Assembly (NCBI RefSeq): GCF_021165935.1
Contig: NZ_CP088953.1
Span: 310,001 to 374,000 of the forward strand
DNA from: Microbulbifer elongatus
GTDB taxonomy: Bacteria > Pseudomonadota > Gammaproteobacteria > Pseudomonadales > Cellvibrionaceae
DNA length: 64,000 nt
Direction: 5' to 3'
The translations under genes and the position numbers were made by a program. The number at the start of each line of letters is the position of its first letter. The first letter of the stretch is position 1. The notes under the pieces were generated by a model. The model was not told the origin of the DNA, ran no database searches, and saw only the letters and a program-made list of their open reading frames with translations. This document shows, in pieces, positions 25,782-43,138 of this stretch.

Positions 25782-26747
25782 ATGACTATTCCCATTCTCT
25801 GCTTTGGCGAAGCACTGATCGACTTTCTCAACACGGGGAAGCAAAAAAACGGTGAACTCGCGCTCAATCAATTCACCCAGTTCCCCGGAGGTGCCCCTGC
25901 GAATGCGGCTGTCGCCATTGCCAAACTGGGAGGCGCGGCACGCTTTTCTGGATAGGTAGGAAGTGACACTTTCGGTGAGTTCCTTGTACAGGCGCTCGAG
26001 CAATATGGGGTAGATACGAGGCACACCTACCATCACACCACTGCTCCCACTGCACTGGCGTTCGTATTTCTCGATGAGCAAGGCGAGCGCAGTTTTCTAT
26101 TCCACCGGGACAATAGTGCGGATATGGTAATGGAGCCCTCTCAGGTTGAGGACAACTGGTTTACAGAGCAACCTATCCTGCACTTTTGCAGTAATACCCT
26201 GACGCATCCAGGCATTACTGAAACTACCCGTACAGTTTTACAGCGTGCGCGCGCAAGAAACTGCCTGATCAGTTTCGACGTGAATCTCAGGCACAATTTA
26301 TGGCCGTCAGGTAGCGCAGATAGGGACTTGATCAACCAGTTTGTGATGCAAAGCCAGCTGGTGAAGTTTTCAGTCGATGAGCTCCAGTATCTAAGTAACG
26401 GCGATAACGACGTCTATCTAAGACGCTGCATTGAGAATGGTGTGCGGGCGATTGTGGTAACGGATGGCGGCAACCCGATCAACCTTTATGCGGAAGGAGT
26501 TCACCGGGTAATCCAGGCACCAAATACCAATGTTGTCGACACCACTGGCGGCGGTGATGCCTTTATTGGTGCGGTACTCTTCGGGTTAAGCCGAAGTGAT
26601 CGGTCAGCCATTGGGAAGATCGATCATTTATCCGCGCTGGTGGCATTTGCCAGCCATTGTGGCTCTATCGCCGTATCCCGCCCTGGTGCCTTCCCGGCAT
26701 TTCCCTCGTTTGATGAAGTTGAGGCATTCTATTGTGGACTTCACTAG
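25782..26747 (+). pseudogene. PfkB-family fructokinase-like gene with one in-frame TAG
   Basis: From the ATG at 25782 the frame reads as a PfkB sugar kinase of 321 codons with a single internal stop, TAG at 25953-25955 (codon 58), in ARFSG-stop-VGSDTFGEFL. Relatives usually have Gln or Lys there (for example FVGQVG or FVGKVG), so one base change explains it. Before the stop are PILCFGEALIDFLNT and FPGGAPANAAVAIAKLGG; after it are the substrate region, ISFDVNLRHNLW and the ATP/anion-hole motif DTTGGGDAFIGAVLFGL (about residue 252). No frameshift is seen. Expected reaction: fructose to fructose 6-phosphate, which suits the mannose isomerase gene that overlaps its 3' end. It is either a young pseudogene or expressed by readthrough. 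Its own terminator codon is also TAG. Confidence 0.85.
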
Positions 26748-27915
26748 CAAAGAATTTTTACGTAACCATATACAGTCGATTCTTGATTTTTATCTGCCGC
26801 ATATCCTCGACGAGAGTGGCGGCTTTTTTCAGAACTTCAAGGATGATGGTGAAGTATTCAACCCTGGGCAGCGGCACCTGGTGTCAAGCTGCAGGATGGT
26901 ATGGAATTTCTGTAAAGCCTACGAACTGTTCGGCGATCAAAAATACCAGCAGCTGGCCCAACACGGCGTTGACTACATTCGGGAAAAACATTGGGATGCA
27001 TCCCGCCAGGGCTACAACTGGACGCTGCGCGAGAATCACCAGGCGGATGATCAAACCAACCACTGTTATGGCCTGGCCTTTGTCATTCTGTGCTTTTCGG
27101 CCGCGCATCAGGCGGGGGTGAGCGGCGCTCAGGAAGACATACAGCGAGCCTACCACATACTCGAAACAAGACTGTGGGATGAGCAGTTTGGACTGTACGC
27201 AGATGAAGCATCACCGGACTGGTCGAGGATTAGTGATTACCGTGGTCAGAACGCAAATATGCACTGCTGCGAAGCGCTGCTAGCCGCCTTCGAGGCGACC
27301 AGTGAGTCTACCTATTTGGATCGTGCCTATCGTCTCGCAAAAACCGTATCAGTAAATCTCGCTGAGGAATCAAACGGTCTGATCTGGGAGCATTTCACGA
27401 AAGACCTGCGCATTGATTGGGAGTACAACAAAGACGACCCAAAAAATCTGTACCGCCCCTGGGGTTTCCAGCCAGGCCATCAGACCGAGTGGACCAAACT
27501 GCTGTTAACTTTGCACCAGCACAAGCCGGAAGACTGGATGCTGGAGCGGGCAAAATTTCTGTTCGATGTCGCACTGGACGCGAGCTGGGATAGTGAACGT
27601 GGTGGTATTTACTACGGATTTTCCCCGGATGGGGCTATCTGCGATGACGAGAAATATTTCTGGGTACAGGCGGAAACATTCGCAGCCGCCGCACGCCTGC
27701 AGATACAGATCGATGATCCGCACTATAAAGAGTGGTACAACAAAATCTGGCAGTACTGCTGGGACAACATGATTGATCACAAGCATGGTGCCTGGTACCG
27801 AATACTGTCTGCCGACAACAAAAAGCTTTCCGACGAGAAGTCTATTGCAGGTGGAAAGTGCGACTACCACTCGATCGGCGCGTGTTGGGACGTACTCCGG
27901 GTACTGGATAGTTGA
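26734..27915 (+). CDS. AGE-family epimerase/isomerase (probable mannose isomerase)
   Basis: A cytoplasmic (alpha/alpha)6-barrel enzyme of the N-acylglucosamine 2-epimerase family, here most like mannose isomerases or mannose 2-epimerases that act on free sugar. The GTG at 26734 is chosen because GAGG lies 9 bp upstream, giving VDFTSKEFLRNHIQ; an in-frame ATG at 26713 has no ribosome site and is the alternative. Landmarks are HLVSSCRMVWNFCKAYEL, DQTNHCYGLAFVILCFSAAH, NANMHCCEALLAAFEAT, RPWGFQPGHQTEWTKLLL, EKYFWVQAETFAAAA and GGKCDYHSIGACWD, which hold the conserved catalytic His residues. It overlaps the end of the kinase gene by 14 bp, so the pair mannose to fructose to fructose 6-phosphate is the likely unit. 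Confidence 0.9.
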   Translation: MDFTSKEFLRNHIQSILDFYLPHILDESGGFFQNFKDDGEVFNPGQRHLVSSCRMVWNFCKAYELFGDQKYQQLAQHGVDYIREKHWDASRQGYNWTLRENHQADDQTNHCYGLAFVILCFSAAHQAGVSGAQEDIQRAYHILETRLWDEQFGLYADEASPDWSRISDYRGQNANMHCCEALLAAFEATSESTYLDRAYRLAKTVSVNLAEESNGLIWEHFTKDLRIDWEYNKDDPKNLYRPWGFQPGHQTEWTKLLLTLHQHKPEDWMLERAKFLFDVALDASWDSERGGIYYGFSPDGAICDDEKYFWVQAETFAAAARLQIQIDDPHYKEWYNKIWQYCWDNMIDHKHGAWYRILSADNKKLSDEKSIAGGKCDYHSIGACWDVLRVLDS

Positions 27916-28007
27916 TTACTCCCGGAACGCTAAGCGGTTGCGCTCGCGGTGGAAATACCGCGGCCCGAATTCGCAGCTTGCGCCTTCGGGCCCGGGCTAT
28001 TCGCTGT

Positions 28008-28967
28008 TCAGCCGGGCTCCATCGCCCCAGCCGCGCGCCCCATATACTCCGCGCGGGGAATAATAGCTCCGCGATGACCGATCACCCGCGCCGCGCACTG
28101 GTTGCCCGCGGCAACCGACTGTGCCGGCGTGGCGCCCTGCAGTCGGGCTGCGAGATAACCCGCATTAAACGAATCCCCGGCACCCGTGGTATCAACCACA
28201 CGGCTGACCGGGGGCACGTCGATCGCGTCAAGCTCGCCATTAACCTGCATCAGAACGGGCTCTGCTCCGCGTTTGACAATCAGCTCGCTGACGCCAGCTG
28301 CCGTGTTTCGCTGTACACACTCCTCAACACGCGTATCACCCCACAAAGCCTGTTCGTCTTCAAACGTCAGCAGTGCCATATCGGTCTGTTGCAAAAAGTC
28401 CATCACCGCAATCTTCGCGACCTCTGCAGAAGCCCACAGGCGCGGACGATAGTTGCTGTCAAAAGCAACGCGACCACCATTGGCACGGTACTCCTGCAGG
28501 AACACCAGCAGTTCGCCACGCGCTTCCGGGCTCATGATCGCCAGGGTGATTCCGGAGAGATACAGGCAATCCATCTGACGCAGGTGCGCCTTGAGTGCTT
28601 CGCGGCGATCCGCATCCGCAAACAGCTCGCGGGCCGGGGACTCCCCTCGCCAGTAGGTAAAATAGCGTTCGCCATCGGCGGTGTTCTGGATCAAATACAG
28701 GCCGGGATTACGCCCCGGGAGCTGAGGGATAGCGCTGGTGTCGATGCCCTCCTGCGTGAGGCAGGCAAGTACTTCCTTACTGTGGGGGTCGTCGCCCAGC
28801 AAGGTTACATAACTGACGTTGACGCCACCGCGGGCAATGTAGACCGCCGTATTGTAAGTATCCCCAGCGAAGGGCTGCATAAACTGCGGCTTACTCGCGT
28901 CTCCGCTGCCAACCGCAGATTGCGGTGCGAGCTCAACCATGACTTCTCCCAGTGCTGCCAGTTTCAC
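28008..28967 (-). CDS. kdgK: 2-keto-3-deoxygluconate kinase
   Basis: A 319-residue PfkB-family kinase that phosphorylates 2-keto-3-deoxygluconate, the common product of the galacturonate, glucuronate and unsaturated-uronate branches encoded here. Landmarks are LAALGEVMVELAP, FAGDTYNTAVYIARGG, the KDG-kinase-type region RYFTYWRGESPARELF, LYLSGITLAIM, FDSNYRPRLW and the ATP-site motif VVDTTGAGDSFNAGYLAARL (about residue 258). It is convergent with the mannose isomerase gene and divergent from uxaC. No KDPG aldolase gene is in the window, so the last step must be encoded elsewhere. Confidence 0.96.
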   Translation of the reverse strand: MKLAALGEVMVELAPQSAVGSGDASKPQFMQPFAGDTYNTAVYIARGGVNVSYVTLLGDDPHSKEVLACLTQEGIDTSAIPQLPGRNPGLYLIQNTADGERYFTYWRGESPARELFADADRREALKAHLRQMDCLYLSGITLAIMSPEARGELLVFLQEYRANGGRVAFDSNYRPRLWASAEVAKIAVMDFLQQTDMALLTFEDEQALWGDTRVEECVQRNTAAGVSELIVKRGAEPVLMQVNGELDAIDVPPVSRVVDTTGAGDSFNAGYLAARLQGATPAQSVAAGNQCAARVIGHRGAIIPRAEYMGRAAGAMEPG

Positions 28968-29086
28968 TTCTCTCTCCCGTGCGCCACAGGCGCCAAATTT
29001 TTAGTTATTGATGGTTGTGGACTTGTATTCTACAACCACCAATCGGATTCCAACCAGCACAAAAATGTCTTACCAGAATGCTTGAC

Positions 29087-29339
29087 TGGTATAACCAATT
29101 TTTGGCACCATGCTAACAATCGTTGCTCACAACAGGGTTCTGTAGCGAGCATCGAGGTTTTCTCCATCGCCTGGCGCATCGGGTATAGGAGCCTGGTTTG
29201 GACCCCTTTGCTAACACTTCGCGCATACCGCCCGCTCCCGCAGCAGCCAGTGCTGCGCGGTGAGCCGGGCCCTTTTCTTTTATGGGCTCCATTTAGGTTT
29301 CTATCTGGCCCAAATGAGTTTCCGGCGCTGGTGAAACCA
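29087..29339. promoter_or_regulatory. GntR-type operator candidates in the kdgK/uxaC divergent spacer
   Basis: The 488-bp spacer holds no gene. At 29087-29101 the plus strand reads TGGTATAACCAATTT, one base different from the dctP site and 120 bp upstream of kdgK. At 29329-29339 TGGTGAAACCA lies about 117 bp upstream of uxaC. In addition, TTGTA (29023-29027) and TACAA (29031-29035) form a small palindrome near kdgK. One site per divergent gene is a plausible reading. Confidence 0.55.
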
Positions 29340-29455
29340 CACAACAATAAACGGATTCGGCCTCCTTCTTTTCTAGCGACAAGCCAAGCGAAAACCTCGC
29401 GAGAGACACGAGCCGCCGGTTCCAAATGGCAAACCCGAAATCTGGAAGCATCCAC

Positions 29456-30871
29456 ATGACACGCCCTCTGATCCTGCATCCCGACCGTCTATTTCCGGCC
29501 GACCAAGTAAGCCGGGATATCGCGCGCAATCTTTACCAGAGCGTGAAAGACCTGCCGATCATCAGCCCGCACGGTCACACCGACCCGTCCTGGTTCGCCG
29601 ACAACCAGCCCTTCGGCAACCCAGCGGACCTGCTGATCCGCCCGGATCACTATGTGTTCCGCATGCTCTACTCCCAGGGCGTTCCCCTGGAGAGCCTGGG
29701 CATCCGCACTCAGGACGGCACCCCGGTAGAACAGGACCCGCGCAAGATCTGGCAACTGCTGGCGGACAACTACCACCTGTTCCGCGGCACTCCATCGCGC
29801 ACCTGGCTGGATACGGTTTTCCACGATGTATTTGGGCTGGATGTTCAGCTCAACAGCGACACCGCCGAGCTGTACTACGACCGCATCGACAGCGCATTGA
29901 AAACACCGGAGTTCCTGCCGCGGGCGCTGTTCGAGCGCTTCAATATCGAGGTGATTGCCACCACTGAGTCCCCGCTGGACGACCTGCGTCACCACCAGAA
30001 GATTCTGGACAGCGGCTGGAAAGGTCGTGTGATCACCGCCTTTCGCCCGGACCCGGTGCTGGATCCGGATTTCGAGGGCTTTACCGATAACCTGGCGCAG
30101 CTGGCTGAGATCACCGGTGAAGACACTTCCACCTGGTCCGGTTACCTGGCGGCCCTGCGCAACCGGCGCGAATTCTTCAAAAAGATGGGCGCGACCTCTA
30201 CCGACCACGGCCACCCCACTGCGACCACCGCGAACCTGTCTGCGGCGGAAGCCGAGGCGCTGTTCCTGAAGGTAGTTACCGGTAATGGCAGTGCGGCAGA
30301 TGCGGAGCTGTTCCGCGGCCAGATGCTGACCGAGATGGCGCGCATGAGTATCGAGGATGGCCTGGTGATGCAGATTCACCCGGGCTCTTTGCGCAATCAC
30401 AACAAGGTGGTGTTCGAGCGCTTCGGCCGCGACAAAGGCTGCGATATTCCGTCCCCGACCGAGTACGTCAGCGCACTGCAACCGCTGCTGGAAGCAGTGG
30501 GCAACGAGCCGGAGCTGAGCATTATTCTGTTCACCCTGGACGAGACCAGCTACAGCCGCGAACTGGCGCCGCTGGCGGGCCACTACCCAGCGCTGAAACT
30601 GGGCCCGAGCTGGTGGTTCCACGACAGCCCGGAAGGTATGCGACGCTTCCGCGAGCAGGTGACCGAGACTGCCGGTTTCTACAATACCGTGGGCTTTAAC
30701 GATGACACCCGCGCGTTCCTGTCCATCCCAGCCCGTCACGATGTGGCGCGCCGCATGGATTGTGTATGGCTGGCGCAACTGGTCAGCGACCACCGCCTGC
30801 AGGAAGACGAAGCCTTCGAACTGGCTGCGGACCTCGCCTACAACCTGGCGAAGAAAGCTTACAAGCTCTGA
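29456..30871 (+). CDS. uxaC: Uronate isomerase (glucuronate/galacturonate isomerase)
   Basis: The start at 29456 (MTRPLILHPDRLFPADQ) has GGAAG six bases upstream; the frame extends further but without a ribosome site. The 471-residue product converts galacturonate to tagaturonate and glucuronate to fructuronate. Landmarks of this amidohydrolase-superfamily enzyme are the metal-site motif ISPHGHTDPSWFAD near residue 35, FNIEVIATTESPLDDL, MQIHPGSLRNHN, GPSWWFHDSPEGMRRFREQVTE and the C-terminal GFNDDTRAFLSIPARHDVARR. Length matches the family (about 470). Downstream lies a palindromic repeat and then uxuB on the same strand. Confidence 0.97.
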   Translation: MTRPLILHPDRLFPADQVSRDIARNLYQSVKDLPIISPHGHTDPSWFADNQPFGNPADLLIRPDHYVFRMLYSQGVPLESLGIRTQDGTPVEQDPRKIWQLLADNYHLFRGTPSRTWLDTVFHDVFGLDVQLNSDTAELYYDRIDSALKTPEFLPRALFERFNIEVIATTESPLDDLRHHQKILDSGWKGRVITAFRPDPVLDPDFEGFTDNLAQLAEITGEDTSTWSGYLAALRNRREFFKKMGATSTDHGHPTATTANLSAAEAEALFLKVVTGNGSAADAELFRGQMLTEMARMSIEDGLVMQIHPGSLRNHNKVVFERFGRDKGCDIPSPTEYVSALQPLLEAVGNEPELSIILFTLDETSYSRELAPLAGHYPALKLGPSWWFHDSPEGMRRFREQVTETAGFYNTVGFNDDTRAFLSIPARHDVARRMDCVWLAQLVSDHRLQEDEAFELAADLAYNLAKKAYKL

Positions 30872-30912
30872 ACTCTGTAGCTTGGTGGTGCTCTGGTCTG
30901 CCTTTGTGGCGC

Positions 30913-31018
30913 CGGAGCACCGGGTATCTGTTTTCAGAACCGCTGTGAACCCATCCCTGGGCGCTGCGGCGCAAACATCCTGTTTGCGACGCTTCTGAAA
31001 ACAGATCCCCGGCACTCC
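30913..31018 (+). repeat. Palindromic repeat with variable arms, copy A
   Basis: Arms CCGGGTATCTGTTTTCAGAA and TTCTGAAAACAGATCCCCGG close an element that contains the core GAACCCATCCCTGGGCG and an inner hairpin (GCGCAAACA ... TGTTTGCG). It starts about 42 bp after the uxaC stop. The core is shared with the copies near 34.6 and 58.7 kb, while the arms are not. Confidence 0.85.
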
Positions 31019-31083
31019 CGCTTAACGTTAGAGCCCAATACTTCGTAAGCGAATTCACATTCGCTCAACCGAGTAGAGAATTT

Positions 31084-32586
31084 ATGAGCCAAGAAAGACT
31101 CAACAACAAACTTCTGGAAAACCTCCCCGCCGAGGTGATCAAGCCGGCCTACGACCGCAACGAAGTCACCACCGGCATCGTGCACCTGGGCATCGGCGCT
31201 TTCCACCGCGCGCACCAGGCGTGGTTCACGGAAAACCGAATTGCCGCCGGGGAAAAGGACTGGGGCATTGTGGGCGCGAGCCTGCGCTCCGCCGGTGTAC
31301 GCGATCAGCTGGTGCCGCAGAACGGCCTCTATTCCGTGGTGGAGAAATCCAACGCGGGCACCAAGGTGCAGATCGTCGGTGCGGTGAGTGATGTGCTGGT
31401 GGGCCCGGAAAGCCCGCAGCAATTACTCGAGCTGCTGGCCCAGGAAAGCGTGCGTATCGTTTCCCTGACCATCACCGAGAAAGGCTACTGCCACGATCCG
31501 GCAAGCGGTGACCTGAACCCGCAGCACCCGGATGTGATTCACGATCTGGCGAATCCTTCACAGCCCAAGTCTGCTCTGGGTTACATCGTCGGCGCCCTGG
31601 CCCTGCGCAAAGAGCGCGGTCTGCCGGGCTTTACCGTGCTGACCTGTGACAACCTGCCGTCCAACGGCAAGCTGCTGGGCAACGTACTGGGTCAGTTCGC
31701 GGAGAAAGTCGACAGCGAACTGGCGGCGTGGATTGCGGAAAACACCACGACGCCGTCCACCATGGTGGACCGCATCGTGCCTGCGACGACCGACGCGGAT
31801 CGCGCAGAGCTGGAAGCGCTGATCGGCTGCCGCGACGAGGCGGCGGTGATGGCGGAGCCCTTCGCCCAGTGGGTTGTGGAAGACAATTTCCTGCGCGGCC
31901 GCCCGGAGTGGGACAAGGCCGGGGCGACCTTTGTAGACGATGTGGAAGTCTACGAGCTGATCAAGCTGCGTCTGCTGAACGGCAGCCACTCCCTGCTGGC
32001 CTACAGCGGCTATCTGGCGGGCTGCGAGACAGTGGCAGACGTGATGGCGGTACCGGCCTTCAACAAGCTGGCGCTGCACTTTATGCAGTCCGAGGCCACT
32101 ACCTCTATCGACGTGCCCGCCGAGTTTGATATTGCCGCTTACCAGGCACAACTGATCGAGCGCTTCGAGAACCGCGCTCTGCGCCACCGCACCTGGCAGA
32201 TCGCCATGGACGGTTCGCAGAAAATTCCGCAGCGCTGGCTCGGCACCCTGCGCCACCAGCTGGCGAACAACGGGGCGATCAATGGGTCTATCGAAGTGCT
32301 GAGCTTTGCGCTGGCCAACTGGATCCGTTACGTAGCCGCGGTGGACGAGAAAGGCAATACTATTGAGGTTTCCGACCCGCTGGCGGAGGAATTGAAAGCT
32401 ATCTGCGATCAGTACAAGCCGCAAGGGAATGAAGCACTGGCCGCAAGCTTCCTCTCATTTACCCCGGTGTTCGGTGACGACCTGAAGCAGAGCGCATCGC
32501 TGCAGGAGGCGGTGGTGGACTGGCTGAACAAACTGGATGCACAGGGCACACTGACCTGTGTGGAAGAAGCGTTCGCAAGCCTGTAA
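31084..32586 (+). CDS. uxuB: Mannitol-dehydrogenase-family oxidoreductase, probable fructuronate reductase
   Basis: A 500-residue NAD(P)-dependent polyol dehydrogenase of the long-chain mannitol dehydrogenase family. It probably reduces fructuronate to mannonate, feeding UxuA. Landmarks are TGIVHLGIGAFHRAHQAWFTE at the N-terminal nucleotide fold, TITEKGYCHDP, FTVLTCDNLPSNG, MVDRIVPATT, the catalytic-region KLRLLNGSHSLLAYSGYLAG (with the Lys/Asn/His set) and MDGSQKIPQRWLGTLRHQL. Length fits UxuB (about 485-500). Tagaturonate reductase (UxaB) belongs to the same superfamily, but this sequence looks like the UxuB/mannitol dehydrogenase branch. The ribosome site is weak. A T-rich terminator follows after about 100 bp. 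Confidence 0.93.
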   Translation: MSQERLNNKLLENLPAEVIKPAYDRNEVTTGIVHLGIGAFHRAHQAWFTENRIAAGEKDWGIVGASLRSAGVRDQLVPQNGLYSVVEKSNAGTKVQIVGAVSDVLVGPESPQQLLELLAQESVRIVSLTITEKGYCHDPASGDLNPQHPDVIHDLANPSQPKSALGYIVGALALRKERGLPGFTVLTCDNLPSNGKLLGNVLGQFAEKVDSELAAWIAENTTTPSTMVDRIVPATTDADRAELEALIGCRDEAAVMAEPFAQWVVEDNFLRGRPEWDKAGATFVDDVEVYELIKLRLLNGSHSLLAYSGYLAGCETVADVMAVPAFNKLALHFMQSEATTSIDVPAEFDIAAYQAQLIERFENRALRHRTWQIAMDGSQKIPQRWLGTLRHQLANNGAINGSIEVLSFALANWIRYVAAVDEKGNTIEVSDPLAEELKAICDQYKPQGNEALAASFLSFTPVFGDDLKQSASLQEAVVDWLNKLDAQGTLTCVEEAFASL

Positions 32587-32683
32587 GACGGTAAGTTTTT
32601 TGTGATCTATCTGCCGGCGGCTGTTCACGCTTAGTGAACAGTGATGTCGGCCTTTCCTTAGGGAATCAAACGTTTGTCGTTTC

Positions 32684-32713
32684 AATCCCGCAGCCTGTGC
32701 TGCGGGATTTTTT
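32684..32713 (+). terminator. Rho-independent terminator after uxuB
   Basis: AATCCCGCAGC, a four-base loop and GCTGCGGGATT are followed by TTTT. It lies about 100 bp past the uxuB stop and 25 bp from the convergent end of kduD. A second hairpin, CTGTTCAC/GTGAACAG at 32621-32641, precedes it. Confidence 0.9.
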
Positions 32714-32736
32714 ATGCCATCCGAAATAAAAAACCA

Positions 32737-33528: not shown

Positions 33529-33593
33529 TCTTTAACTCCAATTCTTTTGGTAGATGCGCCGCGCTTATCTACCCTACGGATGTTCGGTAATTT

Positions 33594-33665
33594 CTGGATA
33601 CCGGCCTTCGCCGGTATGACGCTAAGAATAATTCTTCGTCATCCCGGACTTGATCCGGGATCCAG
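33594..33665. repeat. Intergenic inverted repeat pair of the CCGGxxTTCGxxCCGG type
   Basis: CTGGATACCGGCCTTCGCC... at 33594 and its partner CGTCATCCCGGACTTGATCC... to 33665 are inverted relative to each other. Each half is itself a small hairpin ending in TGACG or CGTCAT. The same family recurs at 49981-50062. It lies between kduI and kduD. Confidence 0.75.
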
Positions 33666-33677
33666 TTAGGAAAAGGA

Positions 33678-34520
33678 TCAACGCAACTCGTGGGGCTGCA
33701 CAAAATCCATATCGTCGTAATCCAGGTTTTCACCCGCCATCCCCCAGATAAAGGTGTAGTTGGCGGTACCTACGCCGGAGTGCAGTGACCAGGTAGGAGA
33801 GATCACCGCCTGCTCATTGTGCATCCAGATGGTACGGGTCTGCCGGGGCGGGCCCATAAAATGGCATACCGCTTGATCTTCCGGCACATTGAAATACATG
33901 TAGGCTTCCATGCGGCGGCTGTGGGTATGGGCCGGCATGGTATTCCAGACACTGCCCGGCGCCAGCTCGGTCATCCCCATCTGCAATTGGCAGGTCTCGA
34001 TAACACCGTGTACCAGCAGCTGGTTGATCACACGCTGGTTGCAGGTTTCACTGGCGCCCCGCTCCATAACATTCGCGTCGGCCTTGCTGACTTTCACCGT
34101 TGGGTAGGCACGGTGTGCCGGCGCGGAGTTCAGGTAGAACTTAGCCGGATTGGATTTGTCCGCACTATTCAGTTTCACTTCGACGGAACCACGCCCCACG
34201 TAGAGCGCTTCCTTGTGACCGATCTCGTGTACCGTGCCATCGACCTCCACGGTCCCGGCGCCACCAATATTGATGAATCCAATCTCGCGGCGCTCTAGGA
34301 AATACTCGGAGCGCAGTTCCTCGACGGTTTCCAGTTGTACAGTTTTCTCCACCGGCATGATGCCGCCAACGATCATGCGATCTACATGGGTGTAGGTAAG
34401 GCGCACCGTATCCGCCTCGAAAAGTTTCGGTACCAGAAACTCTTTGCGCAGGCGGTCGGTATCGTACTTCACATAGTCACTCGGGTGACTGGCGTAGCGC
34501 TCTTCAAATAGAGTTGTCAT
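33678..34520 (-). CDS. kduI: 5-keto-4-deoxyuronate isomerase
   Basis: The start at 34520 (MTTLFEERYASHPSDYVKYDTDRLRKEFL) is preceded by GGGA at six-base spacing, and the 280-residue product matches the usual length. It isomerises 4-deoxy-5-hexoseulose uronate, the product of unsaturated galacturonide breakdown, to 2,5-diketo-3-deoxygluconate. Landmarks of this cupin are IVGGIMPVEKTVQL, YFLERREIGFINIGGAGTVEVDG, ALYVGRGSVEV, TELAPGSVWNTMPAHTHSRRMEAYMYF with zinc-binding His residues, and HNEQAVISPTWSLHSGVGTANYTFIWGMAGENLDYDDMD. It is the gene upstream of kduD. Confidence 0.97.
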   Translation of the reverse strand: MTTLFEERYASHPSDYVKYDTDRLRKEFLVPKLFEADTVRLTYTHVDRMIVGGIMPVEKTVQLETVEELRSEYFLERREIGFINIGGAGTVEVDGTVHEIGHKEALYVGRGSVEVKLNSADKSNPAKFYLNSAPAHRAYPTVKVSKADANVMERGASETCNQRVINQLLVHGVIETCQLQMGMTELAPGSVWNTMPAHTHSRRMEAYMYFNVPEDQAVCHFMGPPRQTRTIWMHNEQAVISPTWSLHSGVGTANYTFIWGMAGENLDYDDMDFVQPHELR

Positions 34521-34550
34521 GTTCATTCCCAGTAGTACTTCAACGATCCC

Positions 34551-34563
34551 ATTGGTCACAGGA
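34551..34563 (-). promoter_or_regulatory. Weak GntR-type operator candidate upstream of kduI
   Basis: The minus strand reads TCCTGTGACCAAT, sharing TGACCAAT with the dctP and TonB receptor sites but lacking a good left half and the TTT tail. It is 30-43 bp upstream of the kduI start, a position suited to a repressor. Weaker than the other sites. Confidence 0.3.
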
Positions 34564-34586
34564 GTCAAATGCGAAGGCGCTGATGG

Positions 34587-34677
34587 CCGGGCCCCTTTCG
34601 CGAGACCTTCTAAAACAGGGACGTTTTAGAAGAGCCCCCAGGGATGGGTTCACGGCGTGTCTCGCGAAAGGGGACCG
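34587..34677 (-). repeat. Palindromic repeat with variable arms, copy B
   Basis: Arms CCGGGCCCCTTTCGCGAGAC (34587-34606) and GTCTCGCGAAAGGGGACCGG (34658-34677) enclose an inner hairpin (CTTCTAAAAC ... GTTTTAGAAG, 34607-34632) and the core CCAGGGATGGGTTCACGGCG. On the minus strand the core has the same orientation to the upstream gene as in copy A. It begins about 54 bp after the GH105 stop. Confidence 0.85.
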
Positions 34678-34730
34678 GACAGCAGTGCCGCCACGGTGCC
34701 ATTTAATAGCACCCAATCGTTATGGGTTAA

Positions 34731-37241
34731 TTAAGATTCAGATTCCAACAGCTTGTACATCTCGACGCCGGAAGTGATAAACGGCGCGGTGCCTTTGGGG
34801 TCGTCGTCATAAATTGGCTCGCTCATGTAGTACTCGTAGCTGCCGTCGCGGCCAAAGCCGAGGCCCGCCACCTGGCACATATCGGTGATGCTGATGGTGC
34901 CGTCGGCGTGTACCTGTACGAACTCATCCAGCAGGCCCTGGTAAGCTTTTTTCGCGGTGGCCAGGTACTTCTCTTTCGGCAGGTAACCCTGGTTCAGCGC
35001 TTTGGCGTAGAAGTAGGTGAACATGGTGCTGGCGGTGGATTCCAGGTAGTTCCCACGCTTGCCCGGCTTGTCGATGATCTGCCACCAGGTACCGGTTTCC
35101 GCGTCCTGGTATTTTTCGATCACCGGTGCAATTTCGGCGATCATGCTCAGCAGGTACTGACGCTCTTCGGTGTTCTCTTCGGGAATAAAGTCCAGTACAT
35201 CCACCAGCGCCATGGCCAGCCAGCCCATACCGCGGGCCCAGTGGTAGCCGGAGAGACCGGTTTCCTTGTCTGCCCAGACCTGCTGACGCTTTTCGTCCCA
35301 GGCGTGGTAGAAGAGGCCGGTTTCCGGGTCTTTCAGGATTTCGTTCACCAGTTTGAACTCCGCCAGCACTTCTTCCACATCGGGTTCTTCGTGCATCAGC
35401 TGTTCGTATTGGGCCAGGAACGGAATGCCCATGTAAACGCCATCCAGCCATACCTGATACGGGTAGATTTTCTTGTGCCAGAAGGCACCGGCGCTGGTGC
35501 GCGGGTGTTGTTCCAGTTGCTCAAACAGGGTATCCACGGCTTTTTTGTAGGCCGGATCCTGGTTGCGCTCGTACATGCGCAGCAGCATGGTGCCGGCGCG
35601 GATGCTGTCGATATTGTATTTTTCCTGCACGTAACCGTTGATGCTGCCATCTTCGTTGACGAAGGAACCCATCACGGTCTGCACTGCATCCGCGTAGCGC
35701 GCTTCCGGTGCGACCATATTCAGTTCGTCGTAGGCCTGCAGCACCATACCGGTGGTGTACTCGAAATAGGACGGGCGCTTGCGGATGTGGTCATAACCAC
35801 CGAAGCGGTAATCCAGGGTTTTGCGCTCAAGCTCGGAGTCCGCCAGCTTTTTGCTCCATTCCAGCGCAACCTCTGCGGTCAGCGGCTTGTCGGTTTCGGC
35901 AACACTTGCCGCAGTGGTCAGGCGCTGACGCAGCGGCATGGTGAGTTTTTCCGCTTCCTGCTTCAGGTAAGTTTCAAACTCGGCCTTGGTGGTGATAGGG
36001 CCGTGCTCACTTTTGCTTTCGTTGGCCCAGGCCGCCACGAAGTAGTACTGCACTTCTTTGTCTGCCGGCTTCAGGATCGCCACCTGGTTGTGCTCGTCGG
36101 TGGTGGTTTCCTTGATCACCTTGTTCTTGGCAATCACCGCCATACCCAGGTTGGCGCCATCCAGGCTCTGCGGGCCGTAGGTGCCGAAATAGGTATAGGC
36201 GTGGCCGGTAATATCGGTATCGCCCAAGATCAACTCGGTGCCCTCGTGATTCACGATACCGGCCACCAGGTTATCCAGCTCTTCGCTGGTTTTTGCATTC
36301 ACTTCCACCAGGCGGCTGCCGGCGTGCATGGACAGTACGGCAGTCAGGTCGGTCTGCAGGTCGGCAACGGGCTTCCAGCCTTTGTACTGCACCTTGAACG
36401 AGGAGTAGAGCTCGCCGTTTTCGGCGATGTCTACTTGCCAATCCTGTACATCGCTTACGCGAATCACTTTTTCGCCGTCCCAGTAGCCGTAGCCACCAAC
36501 GCCAACGGAGCTGCCTACTTTCAGTACGTCCATGCCCCAGTCGGCCGGTTCGTGGTAGGAATCAAATCCGTCCTGTCCTACCCCCTGCAGCACCGGGGTC
36601 TGCACTTTTTTGCCGAAAATATCAAAGCCGTTGCGCCAGTCGAGGTACACGCGGTAACCCACCAAGTCGGATTCAATACCGGGACCTTCGTAGCGGATAA
36701 AGTAGGAGTGGTCGGTGTGCTCTTCAGGCACATCGAGGGAGCTTACGTTCTGGAAGCTGCCGCCCTTGTATTCACGCTCAACCCATTCTCCACCCACCTT
36801 GTGGGAGATTTCGGCCTGGGTGCGTTTCTCGCCTTCTAACGGCGCATCGGCTTCGGCGATACGCAGTTTCAGAGTTTCATCGACGGCAACATCTACAGTG
36901 AAGAGGATGCCGTCTTTGCTGCCATCGGCATCTTTGTCGATGGTCTGCACGGGAATCTGTTCAGCCTGGTTCCACACTGCAATCGGGGAGGCAAAACCGG
37001 CTTTCAATCCGAGTTCGTAGAAGCTGAGGTAAACCGCTTCGTCCAGGCGCGGGAAATCGGACGGATTGGATAGTTCCAGGTGGGCGATAGCGCTGGGCTT
37101 TTCTGCAGCCGGAGCCGCAGCCTCTTCCGGGGACTGCGCGGCCTTTTCGCCACAGGCAGTCAGGGTCGCCGCGGTGAGCGCGAACGCAAGGGCATTCAGA
37201 CCCCGCTTGCTTTGGGACGGATCAAACAGTTTCACAGACAT
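34731..37241 (-). CDS. Lipoprotein with DUF4861-like and GH105 domains (unsaturated galacturonyl hydrolase)
   Basis: The start at 37241 (MSVKLFDPSQSKRGLNALAFALTAATLTACGEK) gives a lipoprotein signal with lipobox LTAC; the longer frame has no ribosome site. The product is about 836 residues. Residues about 50-430 match the pattern of DUF4861 proteins found with pectin genes (YRVYLDWRNGFDIFGKK, DSYHEPADWGMDVLKVG). Residues about 470-835 form a GH105/YteR-like (alpha/alpha)6 domain: FWHKKIYPYQVWLDGVYMGIPFLAQY with the catalytic Asp, GLSGYHWARGMGWLAMALVDVL and ESTASTMFTYFYAKALNQGYLP. It should hydrolyse the unsaturated end of lyase-made oligosaccharides by vinyl-ether hydration, in the periplasm or at the inner face of the outer membrane. 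It follows the TonB receptor, separated by a long terminator hairpin. Confidence 0.9.
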   Translation of the reverse strand: MSVKLFDPSQSKRGLNALAFALTAATLTACGEKAAQSPEEAAAPAAEKPSAIAHLELSNPSDFPRLDEAVYLSFYELGLKAGFASPIAVWNQAEQIPVQTIDKDADGSKDGILFTVDVAVDETLKLRIAEADAPLEGEKRTQAEISHKVGGEWVEREYKGGSFQNVSSLDVPEEHTDHSYFIRYEGPGIESDLVGYRVYLDWRNGFDIFGKKVQTPVLQGVGQDGFDSYHEPADWGMDVLKVGSSVGVGGYGYWDGEKVIRVSDVQDWQVDIAENGELYSSFKVQYKGWKPVADLQTDLTAVLSMHAGSRLVEVNAKTSEELDNLVAGIVNHEGTELILGDTDITGHAYTYFGTYGPQSLDGANLGMAVIAKNKVIKETTTDEHNQVAILKPADKEVQYYFVAAWANESKSEHGPITTKAEFETYLKQEAEKLTMPLRQRLTTAASVAETDKPLTAEVALEWSKKLADSELERKTLDYRFGGYDHIRKRPSYFEYTTGMVLQAYDELNMVAPEARYADAVQTVMGSFVNEDGSINGYVQEKYNIDSIRAGTMLLRMYERNQDPAYKKAVDTLFEQLEQHPRTSAGAFWHKKIYPYQVWLDGVYMGIPFLAQYEQLMHEEPDVEEVLAEFKLVNEILKDPETGLFYHAWDEKRQQVWADKETGLSGYHWARGMGWLAMALVDVLDFIPEENTEERQYLLSMIAEIAPVIEKYQDAETGTWWQIIDKPGKRGNYLESTASTMFTYFYAKALNQGYLPKEKYLATAKKAYQGLLDEFVQVHADGTISITDMCQVAGLGFGRDGSYEYYMSEPIYDDDPKGTAPFITSGVEMYKLLESES

Positions 37242-37302
37242 CTCCACAAATTCGGGTTTTATTCTGTTGTTTGCCATTCGAAAAAAGAACGGCGGTAAAT
37301 CG

Positions 37303-37373
37303 AAAAACGGCCGGGTGCGACTTCGAATTCTCAACACCGGTGTTTCCACCGGCAGAATCCCTGCACCCGGCCG
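37303..37373 (-). terminator. Long terminator hairpin between the TonB receptor and the GH105 gene
   Basis: On the minus strand CGGCCGGGTGC (37373-37363) pairs with GCACCCGGCCG (37318-37308) and runs into TTTTT. An inner hairpin CCGGTG ... CACCGG sits at its top. It starts about 55 bp after the receptor stop. Confidence 0.8.
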
Positions 37374-37428
37374 CTCTATTCAGTACTGCATCGAGCTCTT
37401 AATCGTTACTTTTAATTAAAAGTTTGGA

Positions 37429-40074
37429 TTAGAACTTGTACTGAGCACCTACGTAGTACTGACGACCGGTAGTGTGGTCAACCACGATACGACCGGAGCT
37501 GTCGATCATCTGACGGTTGGCTTCGTTGGTCAGGTTGATACCTTCGAAGCTCAGCTTCCAGTTGTCGTTCACGTCGTAGCTGGCTACGAAGTCGATGTTG
37601 CCAGTACCTTCGGTGTACTCGGTGTCATTACCGTTACGCACAGCCGCCGGAGATTGAGTCAGGTAGTCACTACGCTTCGCGTAGGAAACACGTGCGCTCC
37701 AATCTTCGTTTTCGTAGTACACGGTGGCGTTGTAGGTATTTTTGGACATACCGGTCAACACGTCGTACATCGGGTTTTCTTTGGTGCCGTAATTCATCTC
37801 GGAATCTACATAGGTGTAGTTCAGAATGAGGCCGTAGTTGTCGAAGAACATCTGCTGATACTGCAGCTCGATACCGCTCAGCTCACCACCTTCACCGTTT
37901 ACGTTACGAGAAACATCCCAGATACTGGTTTCGTCGTAACTACCCTCATCGGCAAGCGCAGACGCGTCCAGGCCAGTTTCAGCCCAGGAAATACCGGAGT
38001 CGGTCTGACGGGTAATGAAGGAATCGATATCCTTATAGAAATAGGCTGCTGCGAATACCGCCTCATCAGAGAAGTACCACTCGTAAGACACGTCATAAGC
38101 CCGGGCACGGAACGGATCCAGTTTCGGGTTACCGTAGCTGATGCTGCCGTTAAACTGATCAATTTTACCGCCTGGAGTCAGCGACCCCAGAGACGGACGC
38201 GCCATGACGTCGGCCACGGACAAGCGCACGACCATGTCTTCATGGACGTCCAGCGCTAGGTTCAGAGATGGCAGGGTATCGTCATACTTGTTTTCGGCAG
38301 TGACGCCAACCAGGTTGCCACCGATGTCGGCGAGACCTGCGGATTCAACTTCAGTCGTTACCTGACGCACACCCACATTACCGCGCAGCGGCAGACCCGC
38401 AACTTCGGAACTCCAATCCAACTGCACAAAGTAGCCAAGGCTATCTTCTTTCACGTTACGGATATCTTGCGCACGCGGTGCCATACCGGCCGCAACTTCG
38501 TCAGCATAAGTGGCCAGGGTGGAATGCACATCGGGGGAGAACCAGCTAATACCCTTCATACTGGTTGTGCTGCCCGCGAGTTCAGTTGCGGAAATACCGC
38601 TGAACTTCGGACCAGAGCGCATTTCAGCCACATCGAACTCAAAGCTTTTCTGAGACACGCCACCTTTCAGCGTCATGGTGTCGTTCAGATCAAACTCCAG
38701 ATTGAACGCCGCGGTGTCAAAGCTGTTATCCACAGTGTTTGGACGATGACGCAATTCAACGAAGTCAAAATTGGACGGGTCGGAAGTATCGAAGTCCGCA
38801 AAATCAATGCTGCCGCCGGAGGTGGTGGCGTTGTAGGTAAAACTGTTCTGCACATTGATTGCATCAACGATGGCAGTGGTCTGCATCGGGTTGCTGTAGT
38901 TGGACTCGGATGTACCCCAAAGGACATCACCGCGCAGACGATCGGTAAACTCGTGAGATGCACGGATTGATACCTGGTCGAATTTGGTTTCCAACTCATC
39001 GAAACGGTGCTCAACACGTAGATCGTAATTATCTACCGTCATGGAAGTAATGGTGCCATTACTGTCCATGGTGTAATCCGTCACATCGTATTCCGGGTAG
39101 TTGCCGCCATCCTTCAAGCTAACAGATACAAACTCTTCTTCACGAGTAGCGTCGAACCGAGAGGTCAGATAATCAACCAGAATTTCGGTGCTTTCGGTGG
39201 GACGGAACTGCAGAGTACCGGTAAAGCCCTGGCGCTCCTGCTCGTGGGTAAACTTGCCGTAGCGCGGAATACACGGGAAGAAACCTTCGTTCAGTGCTGC
39301 CAGCTCACTGTCATCCGCACAGGCAGAGCAATTGGCAATTTCTTCACTGGCAGTCCAGCGCACTGTGGAGAAACCTTCCTCCAGAATATTGCGATCGGAG
39401 TAGGAGTAAGAAGCCATCCAGCCGAACGTCTCGGCTTCGTTCTTGCCGCCTACCAGGAAGGAGGTACGCGGATTCGCTTCCTGTGACTGGCTGTTATAGC
39501 CGTACTGCATGTTGGCCGCGAAAGTAAACTCATCAGCCATGTCCAGCGGTCGGCCGGTACCCAGGTCAACGGTTGCACCCAGGGAACCCTCGTCGAGGTC
39601 TGCCGCCATGGTTTTATGAACGGTCAGATTGGAGAACAGCTCGGAAGCAAAGGTGTTGAAGTCAAAGGTGCGATCGCGGTTCGCGCCGCCGGAGGAATCG
39701 GCACCGCCGGTAGTGGAAATCGCTTCCAGACCGTTGATGCGCACACGAGTGAATTGGGAACCCAGGCCACGAACGGCAATGTTACGGCCTTCACCGGCAT
39801 CACGGGTAATGGCGACACCCGGAATACGCTGCAGGGATTCCGCCAGGTTGAGGTCGGGGAAATCGGCGATATCTTCCGCCAGAATGGTGTCTTTGCTGCC
39901 TACAGCATCGCGTTTCTGGTCGAGGGCTTTTGCGAGGCTGGCACGGTAACTACCAGTTACCGTGATCTCTTCCAGGGCTGCATCGCCAATTTGGCTGTCT
40001 TGGGCTTGTGCAAAGGCCGGCACCGCAATCATGGCCATTGCAAGAGTGAGTGGTTTCAGCTCAAAGGTCTTCAT
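37429..40074 (-). CDS. TonB-dependent receptor for pectin oligosaccharides (inferred substrate)
   Basis: An outer-membrane receptor of about 881 residues. The ATG at 40074 (MKTFELKPLTLAMAMIAVPAFAQAQ) is preferred because GGAG lies nine bases upstream; the ATG three codons earlier overlaps that site. The TonB-box region is ALEEITVTGSYRASLAKALDQKRDA. The plug has FPDLNLAESLQRIPGVAITRDAGEGRNIAVRGLGSQFTRVRINGLEA. The barrel ends in the aromatic terminus YYVGAQYKF. It is of the same Xanthomonas/Caulobacter type as the receptor at 14.6 kb but shows only family-level resemblance. Its neighbours (GH105, GH28, kdu genes) and the operators upstream make galacturonate oligomers the likely cargo. Confidence 0.95.
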   Translation of the reverse strand: MKTFELKPLTLAMAMIAVPAFAQAQDSQIGDAALEEITVTGSYRASLAKALDQKRDAVGSKDTILAEDIADFPDLNLAESLQRIPGVAITRDAGEGRNIAVRGLGSQFTRVRINGLEAISTTGGADSSGGANRDRTFDFNTFASELFSNLTVHKTMAADLDEGSLGATVDLGTGRPLDMADEFTFAANMQYGYNSQSQEANPRTSFLVGGKNEAETFGWMASYSYSDRNILEEGFSTVRWTASEEIANCSACADDSELAALNEGFFPCIPRYGKFTHEQERQGFTGTLQFRPTESTEILVDYLTSRFDATREEEFVSVSLKDGGNYPEYDVTDYTMDSNGTITSMTVDNYDLRVEHRFDELETKFDQVSIRASHEFTDRLRGDVLWGTSESNYSNPMQTTAIVDAINVQNSFTYNATTSGGSIDFADFDTSDPSNFDFVELRHRPNTVDNSFDTAAFNLEFDLNDTMTLKGGVSQKSFEFDVAEMRSGPKFSGISATELAGSTTSMKGISWFSPDVHSTLATYADEVAAGMAPRAQDIRNVKEDSLGYFVQLDWSSEVAGLPLRGNVGVRQVTTEVESAGLADIGGNLVGVTAENKYDDTLPSLNLALDVHEDMVVRLSVADVMARPSLGSLTPGGKIDQFNGSISYGNPKLDPFRARAYDVSYEWYFSDEAVFAAAYFYKDIDSFITRQTDSGISWAETGLDASALADEGSYDETSIWDVSRNVNGEGGELSGIELQYQQMFFDNYGLILNYTYVDSEMNYGTKENPMYDVLTGMSKNTYNATVYYENEDWSARVSYAKRSDYLTQSPAAVRNGNDTEYTEGTGNIDFVASYDVNDNWKLSFEGINLTNEANRQMIDSSGRIVVDHTTGRQYYVGAQYKF

Positions 40075-40104
40075 GACTCTCATCTCCGCTTGTCGTCGTT
40101 ATTC

Positions 40105-40196
40105 TGGTAAAACCTTTTTGGTAATACCGCTTATTATCAATGCAGGTCGATAGTCGCACACGGATTACCAACTATCAACTTTTGGCTGACCAATTT
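40105..40196 (-). promoter_or_regulatory. Cluster of GntR-type operator candidates upstream of the TonB receptor
   Basis: TGGTAAAACCT (40105-40115) and TGGTAATACCG (40119-40129) are tandem near-palindromes 14 bp apart, immediately upstream of the start codon and its ribosome site. TTGGCTGACCAATTT (40182-40196) matches the extended pectin motif about 110 bp upstream. The arrangement suggests a strongly repressed promoter; regulator assignment is inferred. Confidence 0.5.
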
Positions 40197-40322
40197 TTTA
40201 CTTTTTTTGATTGCTTTACGGCCGATTAGGAAGAATATCGCGCCAGCCCGGCTTAATCCAGCGCGCGGGAGAGCGCGCTGTCGGGCTCAACGTGGTTGCA
40301 TTTGCGTTAGATGGCTGAGAGG

Positions 40323-41762
40323 TCAGCCGGGCTGGAATAGCTGACCATTGATCGATAATTGACTCACGGTCAGGCCAGTCACTTCTTCGATTACACCAAT
40401 GGAATCCGCGTGCTCAATGCGGCTGTTGGAAATTCGCAGATCGCGAATCGGGGCGCGCTCGAAGCCGCGGATCTGGAAGGCACGCCTGGCTTTCTTGCAC
40501 ACCAGGTTTTCCACCTGAATGTTGTAAACAGTGGGGTCAAAGTCGCCCTTGTCGCCTTCTTCGTAGTAGAAGTTGATGACGATGACGTCTTTTACCTCCC
40601 CAATGGTCAGATTCCGTACGTAGATATCGTGAATCTCGCCACCGCGCACGGAGTTGGTCTTGATCCGCAGCCCCCGCTCCAGGTGCGGGCTGCTCATCAC
40701 ACAGTCTTCCAGAAAGACGTTGCGCACGCCGCCAGAGATTTCGCTGCCCAGCACCAGGCCACCGTGACCATCGCGCATCTGACAGTTCCGCACCACCACA
40801 TTCTCGGTCGGCACATTGACGCGACGGCCATCCGCATTGCGACCGGACTTGATCGCAATACAGTCATCGCCGTTATCGAACAGGCAGCCTTCAATCAGCA
40901 CATTGCGGCAGGATTCCGGGTCGCAGCCATCGGAGTTTGGCCCATGGCTTCTCGTGGTCACACCGCGCACGGTGAGACTGTTGCACAGCACCGGGTGGAT
41001 TACCCAGAACGGAGAGTTCTCCAGGGTCACACCTTCGATCAGCACGTTATCGCACTCGTAGAACTGCACCAGGGGCGGGCGCAGGAAGGAGCCTTCGGCG
41101 TAGAGGCGCTCGGCCACCGGCACACCGGCCTCGACATCTTTCATCAATGCATCACGGGGGCCGTGCTAGGTATCACCTTCATTGGTGCTGTTGTCGCACT
41201 TGGTATTTTTCCCCTTCCAGGGCCACCAGGTGTGGCAGTCGGCACCGCCGTCGATCAGCCCCTTACCGGTCAGGGCGATATTCTCGCACCGATGGGCGTA
41301 GATCAGCGGGGAGTACCCCATCATCTCCATGCCCTCCCAGCGGGTTTTTACCGCGGGCAGATAGCGTTCGGGTTCGGGGATAAAGTGAATCTCCGCACCT
41401 TCCTGCAGGTGCAGCTCGGTATTGGAAGCCAGATGAATGGGGCCAGTACGATATTTGCCCGCCGGCACCACAATGCGCCCGCCACCGGCCTTGCGGCTTG
41501 CCTCCACCGCTGCGGCAAAAGCTTCGGAGGCATCTTCACCCTCGCCTTGCGCGCCCAGGTCGCGCAGATTGAAATCGCGCGCGGGAATCACCGGCAGCTG
41601 GATATCGGACAGAATCTTCGGCACCCGAGCCCAGGGGCCGGCATATTCGGCCCGTGGCGGGCGGCTCATGGCGACGGCCTGGGGCAGCAGCCCCGGCACA
41701 GCGGGTAGCGCGGCAGCGGCGGCCAGTGATTGCAGGAAGACTCGGCGGTTGAGTCCGGTCAT
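40323..41762 (-). pseudogene. Tat-exported GH28 polygalacturonase with one in-frame TAG
   Basis: The frame from 41762 to 40323 is exactly 480 codons with one internal TAG at 41168-41166 (codon 199): NEGDT-stop-HGPRDALMKDV. A CAG-to-TAG change (Gln) explains it. The N-terminus LNRRVFLQSLAAAAALPAVPG is a twin-arginine signal. All GH28 catalytic motifs lie after the stop and are intact: NSDGCD (about 274), GDDCIAIKSG (about 294), DGHGGLVLGSE (about 330) and GLRIKT (about 366). A product ending at the TAG would be inactive, so the gene is either newly dead or needs readthrough. Expected function: hydrolysis of galacturonan or pectic oligosaccharides in the periplasm. It lies between the TonB receptor and the regulator gene, with an operator-like site upstream. 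Confidence 0.9.
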
Positions 41763-41862
41763 AAATACCTCCCGGGACTTATTCTTTTACAGGCGTAGGA
41801 CTAGTGTTCATCGCTGACAGGTCACACAAATGGCAAGACCAGTTTCAAAGTCGGCTCAATAA

Positions 41863-41876
41863 TGTCATACCAATTT
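41863..41876. promoter_or_regulatory. GntR-type operator candidate upstream of the GH28 gene
   Basis: The plus strand reads TGTCATACCAATTT, a match to the right half and spacing of TGGTnnnACCAATTT. It is about 100 bp upstream of the GH28 start and about 95 bp past the terminator of the regulator gene. Confidence 0.5.
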
Positions 41877-41969
41877 AACCAGGACAATAACCATGCGGTC
41901 ACGCCGATCGTGAATCCGCCTGTCCGGTTCGCGACAAAACTCCTGGATCGCGGCCGAGATAGCAGGCAC

Positions 41970-41996
41970 AAAAAAGCCGGCACAGGGCCGGCTTTT
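41970..41996 (-). terminator. Rho-independent terminator after the interrupted GntR gene
   Basis: On the minus strand, AAGCCGGC, a five-base loop and GCCGGCTT are followed by TTTT. It lies about 20 bp past the regulator stop. Confidence 0.9.
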
Positions 41997-42016
41997 CGGG
42001 GAGGCGGGATTGAGTC

Positions 42017-42754
42017 CTAGGGCAGCGCAAAACGCTGACGCGCGGCGCTCATTTCACGGCGCGCCTGCTCCAGTGCCTCGGCTTCCGTGGCATCGAGCAA
42101 CTGCTGCACGACCCGCTGAAGGTGATCGCGCATGGCATTGCGCGCGCCGTCCGGGTCGCGGCTCTTGATCGCATCCAGAATCCGGCGGTGCTCTTCAATA
42201 CGGGGCTTGGACCCGGCCTGACGCACCTTTTCCAGAATGCGGGCGGAAACCGATGAACTGTTGCGCAGCTTCCACAGGTGCTCACAAACCGACACCACCG
42301 CGTCGTTGTGGGTGCATTGGGCGATATGCAGGTGAAACTTTTCATCCGCGACTTCCGCACTGGATTCCGTCGCATTCTCCGCGACCATTTCTTCCAGGAT
42401 GGACTCCAGCTGCTGCACCTCATCGTCGGTCATTTCGCGCGCAGCCAGGCCCGCGGCCTCGCCCTCAAACATCATGCGTGCCTACAGGATCTCGAATGCA
42501 CCGATATCGCTCTCCCCGGCGGAAAAGGCGCTGGCTTCGGAGTCGGTCACGTAGACCCCGGAGCCACCTTTCACTTCCACACAGCCTGCCAGCTCCAGCG
42601 CAATGATCGCCTCGCGCACGGTGGGGCGGCTGACCTCAAAACGTTCGGCCAGTTTGCGCTCTGCGGGCAGACGGGTACCGGCCGGGTAGTCACCGGCGGC
42701 AATGGCAGCGGCCAGTTTTTCGGCCACCTGTTGATAAAGTCTGGCACCCTGCAT
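42017..42754 (-). pseudogene. GntR/FadR-family regulator with one in-frame TAG (UxuR/ExuR-like)
   Basis: The frame from 42754 to 42017 is 246 codons with a single internal TAG at 42484-42482 (codon 91): GAFEIL-stop-ARMMFEGEAAGLAA. The paralogue at 17550 reads FEILEARLHLEPEAAYLAA, so the lost residue is most likely Glu (GAG to TAG). The N-terminal winged helix (residues about 8-75: PAGTRLPAERKLAERFEVSRPTVREAIIALELAGCVEVKGGSGVYV) is whole and precedes the stop. The FCD ligand and dimer domain (DEKFHLHIAQCTHND, EEHRRILDAIKSRD, MRDHLQRVV) follows it. A truncated product would have DNA-binding parts only. It is the natural candidate for control of the ACCAATTT operators. It also terminates at TAG, and a terminator follows. 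Confidence 0.88.
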
Positions 42755-43100: not shown

Positions 43101-43138
43101 AAATTGGTCTACCCTTCCGATTGCGGCCTTACCAATAT
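43101..43138. promoter_or_regulatory. GntR-type operator candidates upstream of uxaA; rest of the 450-bp spacer without a gene
   Basis: The minus strand at 43115-43101 reads AGGGTAGACCAATTT and the plus strand at 43125-43138 reads GGCCTTACCAATAT. The sites are about 70-105 bp upstream of uxaA. ACCAAATTGGT at 43098-43108 is an 11-bp palindrome also found at dctP (11401-11411). The remaining spacer (42755-43205) is partly very GC-rich and shows no convincing gene or RNA. Confidence 0.5.

What the first reader, a model, noticed from the sequence alone, without database searches (positions are those of the whole stretch)
25782..42754. Three genes of one uronate region each carry a single in-frame TAG and nothing else wrong
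The kinase gene (TAG 25953-25955), the GH28 gene (TAG 41168-41166) and the GntR gene (TAG 42484-42482) have intact frames of 322, 480 and 246 codons broken by exactly one TAG each. No frameshift, TAA or TGA disruption was seen in any gene of the window. The missing residues are most likely Gln or Lys, Gln and Glu, each one base from TAG. Random decay should also give indels and other stops, so this bias is striking. Possible explanations are very recent inactivation of the region, an amber suppressor tRNA, regulated readthrough, or sequence error. TAG is also an ordinary stop elsewhere (17385-17387, 50075-50073, 54026-54024), so global reassignment is unlikely.
Basis: partly seen in the sequence, partly recalled or inferred. 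Interest (0 to 1): 0.82.

Follow-up and report, generated by a model that had tools for sequence, protein, structure and literature searches.

The report
Young amber-stop pseudogenes in Microbulbifer
Three sugar-use genes of a marine bacterium each carry one premature TAG stop where relatives have glutamine; they look like very recent knock-outs in one stretch of the chromosome, not a changed genetic code.

Summary
In detail: the sugar kinase, GH28 and ExuR-like GntR genes each have one in-frame TAG in an otherwise open frame. In 41.6% of the 4.20-Mb chromosome I recognised five interior stops, all TAG, all between 282.9 and 379.3 kb. A changed decoding machinery finds no support: no CUA tRNA among 44 tRNA hits, ordinary RF1, unchanged tRNA-Gln, and TAG ends 185 of 1146 genes. 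A C-to-T burst or error-rich stretch is disfavoured where the region aligns with strain HZ11, though missense G:C>A:T changes are somewhat raised in 270-330 kb. Apart from the TAG, GntR has 23 synonymous and 0 missense own-lineage codon changes, so the stops look young. A frameshifted TonB-receptor gene elsewhere shows that this genome also has other lesions. Best reading: recent nonsense pseudogenes in dispensable carbohydrate and accessory genes, with a TAG bias partly expected from codon use. The all-TAG cluster stays mildly unexplained (chance about 0.5-5%, post hoc).

The parts
25782..26747 (+). PfkB-family sugar kinase gene interrupted at codon 58
   Evidence: closest intact homolog 97% identical, named from Microbulbifer sp. 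ARAS458-1
25953..25955 (+). in-frame TAG of the kinase gene
   Evidence: Gln in 120 of 120 listed homologs
40323..41762 (-). GH28 (polygalacturonase/galacturonidase-like) gene interrupted at codon 199
   Evidence: intact homologs at 96% (M. elongatus) and 93% (HZ11) identity
41166..41168 (-). in-frame TAG of the GH28 gene
   Evidence: CAG in 14 of 14 Microbulbifer loci
42017..42754 (-). GntR/FCD regulator gene, ExuR-like, interrupted at codon 91
   Evidence: intact homologs at 98% identity
42482..42484 (-). in-frame TAG of the GntR gene, at the start of the FCD domain
   Evidence: CAG in 14 of 14 Microbulbifer loci
33678..44729 (.). surrounding pectin/galacturonate cluster: KduI/IolB, DUF4861-GH88, TonB receptor, GH28, GntR, altronate/galactarate dehydratase

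Best explanation
These are very young nonsense pseudogenes. In one Microbulbifer lineage, ordinary point changes turned Gln codons into TAG in a sugar kinase, a pectin-degrading enzyme and its neighbouring ExuR-like regulator. RF1 should stop translation there and leave truncated products; the GntR product would keep its DNA-binding part and lose nearly all of the FCD part. These are conditionally used carbohydrate genes, so their loss is tolerated or briefly favoured. Shown: the stops, Gln in relatives, conservation of the rest of GH28 and GntR, ordinary RF1 and tRNA-Gln, TAG in use as a normal stop. Inferred: loss of function, recency, weak or shifted selection. The TAG excess comes partly from CAG being common (3.8% of codons) and G:C>A:T being the largest class of changes; the rest I put down to chance.
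For: Otherwise intact frames. No split-frame counterpart flagged among 55 HZ11 ORFs. Besides the TAGs, own-lineage codon changes are 23 synonymous to 0 missense in GntR and 53 to 5 in GH28, close to HZ11's 37:0 and 63:5, so purifying selection held until lately. Intact homologs at 93-98% identity. TAG ends 185 of 1146 genes. No CUA tRNA among 44 hits; RF1 and tRNA-Gln ordinary. Three of the five TAGs, the kinase's included, lie in stretches without an HZ11 counterpart, that is accessory DNA. The 152-residue GntR remnant, 100% identical, is listed in 2 contigs, though the second contig's origin is unknown to me.
Against: 5 of 5 recognised interior stops are TAG and lie within 97 kb; 3 of 3 readable sites were Gln; chance about 0.04-0.05 and 0.005-0.015. 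No clear frameshift or other stop in the same stretch. Strong conservation would also fit proteins that are still made. Loss of function was not tested.
Confidence: 0.62

Rival explanations
1. Consensus or base-calling errors in the deposited assembly put T for C at these sites, and the genes are intact in the organism.
For: Single lesions in well-conserved frames, clustered in 97 kb. No reads were available.
Against: Stops are a small part of random errors, so five would imply many more changes: in 339-380 kb the own lineage has 345 G:C>A:T changes against 472 in HZ11, with 34 against 46 missense, and C>T at CAG in any frame is 17 of 1629 against 22 of 1841. No split frames in 55 matches. The GntR remnant is listed in 2 contigs. 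Not excluded: missense G:C>A:T in 270-330 kb is 85 against 58 (p 0.03), and three of the five TAGs lie where nothing aligns.
Confidence: 0.13
2. UAG is partly read as Gln in this organism, by near-cognate tRNA-Gln or an unseen suppressor, so the genes are still expressed at a low or regulated level.
For: Gln at 3 of 3 readable sites and purifying selection on both sides of the stops. The tRNA list lacks Ile-GAT and Ala-TGC, so a tRNA may be missed.
Against: A trans-acting suppressor should act genome-wide, but the recognised interior TAGs sit in 97 kb, and 0 of 152 TonB, MFS and ABC domain matches hold a TAG. RF1 is 99% identical to that of a genus relative. TAG ends 16.1% of genes and is not followed by a second stop more often than TAA or TGA.
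Confidence: 0.07
3. A local burst of C-to-T change, by a mutagen, a deaminase or targeted editing, hit this stretch.
For: Clustering and C-to-T at the readable sites; missense G:C>A:T in 270-330 kb 85 in the own lineage against 58 in HZ11.
Against: Total G:C>A:T changes are not raised: 421 against 448 in 270-330 kb and 345 against 472 in 339-380 kb; C>T overall is 565 of 17,090 against 631 of 19,339. Genes on both strands are hit.
Confidence: 0.07

Closest known systems
[quoted passage not shown] 2021, PMC7918605)
   Same: Single in-frame stop with purifying selection on the rest; the paper's own example is a TAG/CAG site; carbohydrate genes are its second-largest category
   Different: There stops shared by two or more genomes were studied and read largely as readthrough; here the stop was seen in one chromosome only and is read as recent loss
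supE-type amber suppressor strains (recalled)
   Same: Gln at the TAG sites in relatives
   Different: No CUA anticodon among 44 tRNA hits; tRNA-Gln(TTG) unchanged
UAG reassignment with loss of RF1 (recalled)
   Same: TAG inside conserved genes
   Different: RF1 present and ordinary; TAG ends 16.1% of 1146 genes

Membership tests
Young nonsense pseudogene | one interior stop in an otherwise intact, homologous frame | tested here: met
Young nonsense pseudogene | little or no relaxation of selection elsewhere in the gene | tested here: met
   GntR 23:0 and GH28 53:5 synonymous to missense besides the TAG; kinase not tested
Young nonsense pseudogene | sense codon at the site in sister genomes | tested here: met
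   14 of 14 Microbulbifer loci for GH28 and GntR; kinase by proteins only
Young nonsense pseudogene | loss of protein function | not testable with these tools
   needs proteomics or assay
Amber suppressor strain | tRNA with CUA anticodon | tested here: not met
   none among 44 hits; list lacks Ile-GAT and Ala-TGC, so possibly incomplete
Amber suppressor strain | interior TAGs spread over the genome | tested here: not met
   five recognised, all within 97 kb, in 41.6% sampled
UAG reassignment | RF1 lost or altered | tested here: not met
UAG reassignment | TAG avoided as terminator | tested here: not met
   185 of 1146 genes
Programmed readthrough | stop conserved across relatives | tested here: not met
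   no stop in the 14 Microbulbifer loci at the GH28 and GntR sites
Pyrrolysine decoding | pylS and tRNA-Pyl | tested here: inconclusive
   no CUA tRNA seen; pylS not searched

The most novel reading that the evidence does not exclude
This lineage tolerates UAG at Gln positions through leaky Gln insertion, so that a CAG-to-TAG change works as a reversible down-regulator of niche genes gathered in one chromosomal stretch: an early step toward codon capture with RF1 still present.
Probability: 0.05. Interest if true: 0.75.

Novelty: new member of a known kind. Interest (0 to 1): 0.27.

Why it matters
It is a clean case for asking whether a single in-frame stop is a true loss, an assembly artefact or a tolerated leaky codon. 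The counts here show that no change of code is needed. If several isolates shared the TAGs and still made full-length protein, an early stage of codon capture could be tested directly.

Tried and rejected
Suppressor tRNA, RF1 defect, global reassignment, C-to-T burst and CAG-specific error were tested and not supported. A shared motif at the sites was looked for by eye only; none was apparent. The residue at genome 282908 could not be read because homologs vary there. The first composition scan, without a six-frame comparison, gave 60 candidates, many judged antisense shadows; six-frame scans replaced it: 23 candidates in 544 kb, 54 in 944 kb, 42 in a further 800 kb, 53 in 1,744 kb with stricter rules. 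In these, TAA and TGA candidates and some TAG ones were set aside by eye as gene boundaries or shadows, not by homology. The scans cannot see frameshifts. A pattern search for tRNA tails was too loose to tell anything (256 matches against 131 in its control). Paper searches: one search found none; some searches gave listings, of which only PMC7918605 was opened (abstract, first part of Results, first part of Discussion). The strain name was not established.

Full report
What is there. The window is G000:C1:310001-374000 of a single 4,196,952-base contig, 99.98% complete, from a relative of Microbulbifer sp. HZ11. The kinase gene has TAG at 25953-25955, the GH28 gene at 41168-41166 and the GntR gene at 42484-42482; the rest of each frame is open. 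Pfam finds PfkB across the kinase stop, a GntR domain before and an FCD domain across the regulator's stop, and GH28 after the stop of the third gene. NCBIfam's best matches, all below their cut-offs, are fructokinase, alpha-galacturonidase and ExuR. GH28 and GntR sit in a pectin/galacturonate cluster; the kinase sits 15 kb away among a GH92, oxidoreductases, a 3-keto-disaccharide hydrolase, a GlcNAc-epimerase-like protein and UxaC.

What the residues are in relatives. At the GH28 site 14 of 14 Microbulbifer loci have CAG; at the GntR site 14 of 14 have CAG and 6 of 6 more distant loci have GAA or GAG (GH28 rows under 52% identity were dropped). Among listed homologs the kinase site is Gln in 120 of 120, the GntR site Gln in 31 and Glu in 88 of 119, the GH28 site Gln in 90 of 120. 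For the kinase only proteins were read, so its former codon is inferred. Intact homologs exist at 97% (kinase, Microbulbifer sp. ARAS458-1), 98% (GntR) and 96% (GH28, M. elongatus).

How common. I scanned 1,744,000 bases of the chromosome, 41.6%, for stops with coding signal on both sides. Five interior stops were recognised, all TAG: genome 282908, 335953, 351166, 352482 and 379344. The first is supported by homologs that run across it (6 of the 243 other genomes of the order have one); the last rests on the scan and on one printed flank resembling RHS repeats. Two further TAG candidates of the strict scan, 1828139 and 3517758, were judged gene boundaries by eye, as were the TAA and TGA candidates, some being antisense shadows. 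Outside the window both further TAGs fell in 80 kb of flanks out of 1,680 kb sampled (squared share 0.002; n = 2, post hoc). Whole-genome family searches gave 69 TonB, 35 MFS and 48 ABC domain matches: 0 with TAG, 0 with TAA, 1 with two TGA; that one looks like a frameshift. A strict scan of 596,755 bases of relatives gave 13 candidates, one of them a TAG with a start codon nearby that was not looked at.

Other lesions. Against HZ11, 55 of 100 ORFs have a match in genome 270-414 kb, 6 were flagged, none split over two frames; against the uncultured relative 44 of 97 matched and 6 were flagged; against M. elongatus 24 of 53 matched and 4 were flagged. Besides the GH28 and GntR TAGs, most flagged stops lie within the first 31 residues of the relative's ORF and look like start extensions; a TAG at 270349 (residue 53 of 321) and a TAA at 364881 (residue 64 of 361) stay undecided.

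Decoding machinery. 44 tRNA hits, none with a CUA anticodon. The list lacks Ile-GAT and Ala-TGC, which usually sit in ribosomal operons (recalled), so it may be incomplete. The two tRNA-Gln(TTG) genes are identical, and a G008 copy is 100% identical over the tRNA. RF1 is 82-99% identical to that of 25 other genomes of the genus, without stops. TAG ends 185 of 1146 genes (16.1%); a second stop within 10 codons follows 25.9% of TAG, 25.5% of TAA and 28.9% of TGA ends.

Is the region mutated? With HZ11 and an uncultured relative as references, in 339-380 kb (30,733 aligned sites) the own lineage has 345 G:C>A:T changes (280 synonymous, 34 missense, 2 stops) and HZ11 472 (386, 46, 0); HZ11 has one nonsense change of its own there, TAT to TAA at 357057. 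In 270-330 kb total G:C>A:T is 421 against 448, but missense is 85 against 58 (p 0.03), a result against my reading; over the whole region missense is 142 against 120. C>T at CAG in any frame is 17 of 1629 against 22 of 1841; C>T overall 565 of 17,090 against 631 of 19,339. The kinase TAG and the two outer TAGs lie in stretches without HZ11 counterpart, so this test does not reach them.

How old? Besides the TAGs, own-lineage codon changes are 23 synonymous and 0 missense in GntR, 53 and 5 in GH28; HZ11 has 37:0 and 63:5. The stops are young, or the proteins are still made.

Chance. Codon use predicts TAG at 52-56% of nonsense changes and CAG>TAG at 18-25%, under two sets of weights that I chose. 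Five of five TAG then has probability about 0.04-0.05, three of three CAG>TAG about 0.005-0.015. These are post hoc and leave out frameshifts.

Verdict. Recent nonsense pseudogenes are the simplest account. PMC7918605 (abstract, first part of Results, first part of Discussion read) finds such in-frame stops widespread and mostly short-lived, with carbohydrate genes the second-largest category but no major trend apart from mobile elements; its authors lean to readthrough rather than loss, which keeps that rival open. The regional all-TAG pattern is a mild anomaly that reads, sister isolates and proteomics would settle.

Noticed in passing
L171:5344-14415 (minus strand), genome 379344: A 3023-residue ORF ends at a TAG and the same frame goes on for 400 codons; separate pieces match SpvB, TcdB_toxin_midN, FG-GAP and RHS repeats, so it is related to Tc/RHS proteins. 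Described only.
   Followed up: no
L169:12455-13948 (minus strand), genome 282908: An accessory gene of unknown function with a CxxCH motif carries an interior TAG; homologs in 6 other genomes of the order have no stop.
   Followed up: partly
L316, genome about 913.8 kb: A TonB-receptor gene seems to change frame near its 3' end (two TGA in the old frame, a new ORF in another frame), so this genome also has non-amber lesions.
   Followed up: partly
genome 270349 and 364881: A TAG and a TAA inside matches to HZ11 ORFs that are not plainly start extensions; undecided.
   Followed up: partly
L151:9161 and 11147, genome 429161 and 431147: Two composition-scan hits 1986 bases apart with identical scores and frame lengths, suggesting a local duplication.
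   Followed up: no
genome 213791, 475641, 608203, 2432649: Nearly the same translated stretch turns up at four places, probably a multi-copy element.
   Followed up: no
G058:C2:1041630-1042337 (HZ11): A GntR-family paralog in HZ11 matches with two TGA inside, so the sister strain may hold a broken regulator too.
   Followed up: no
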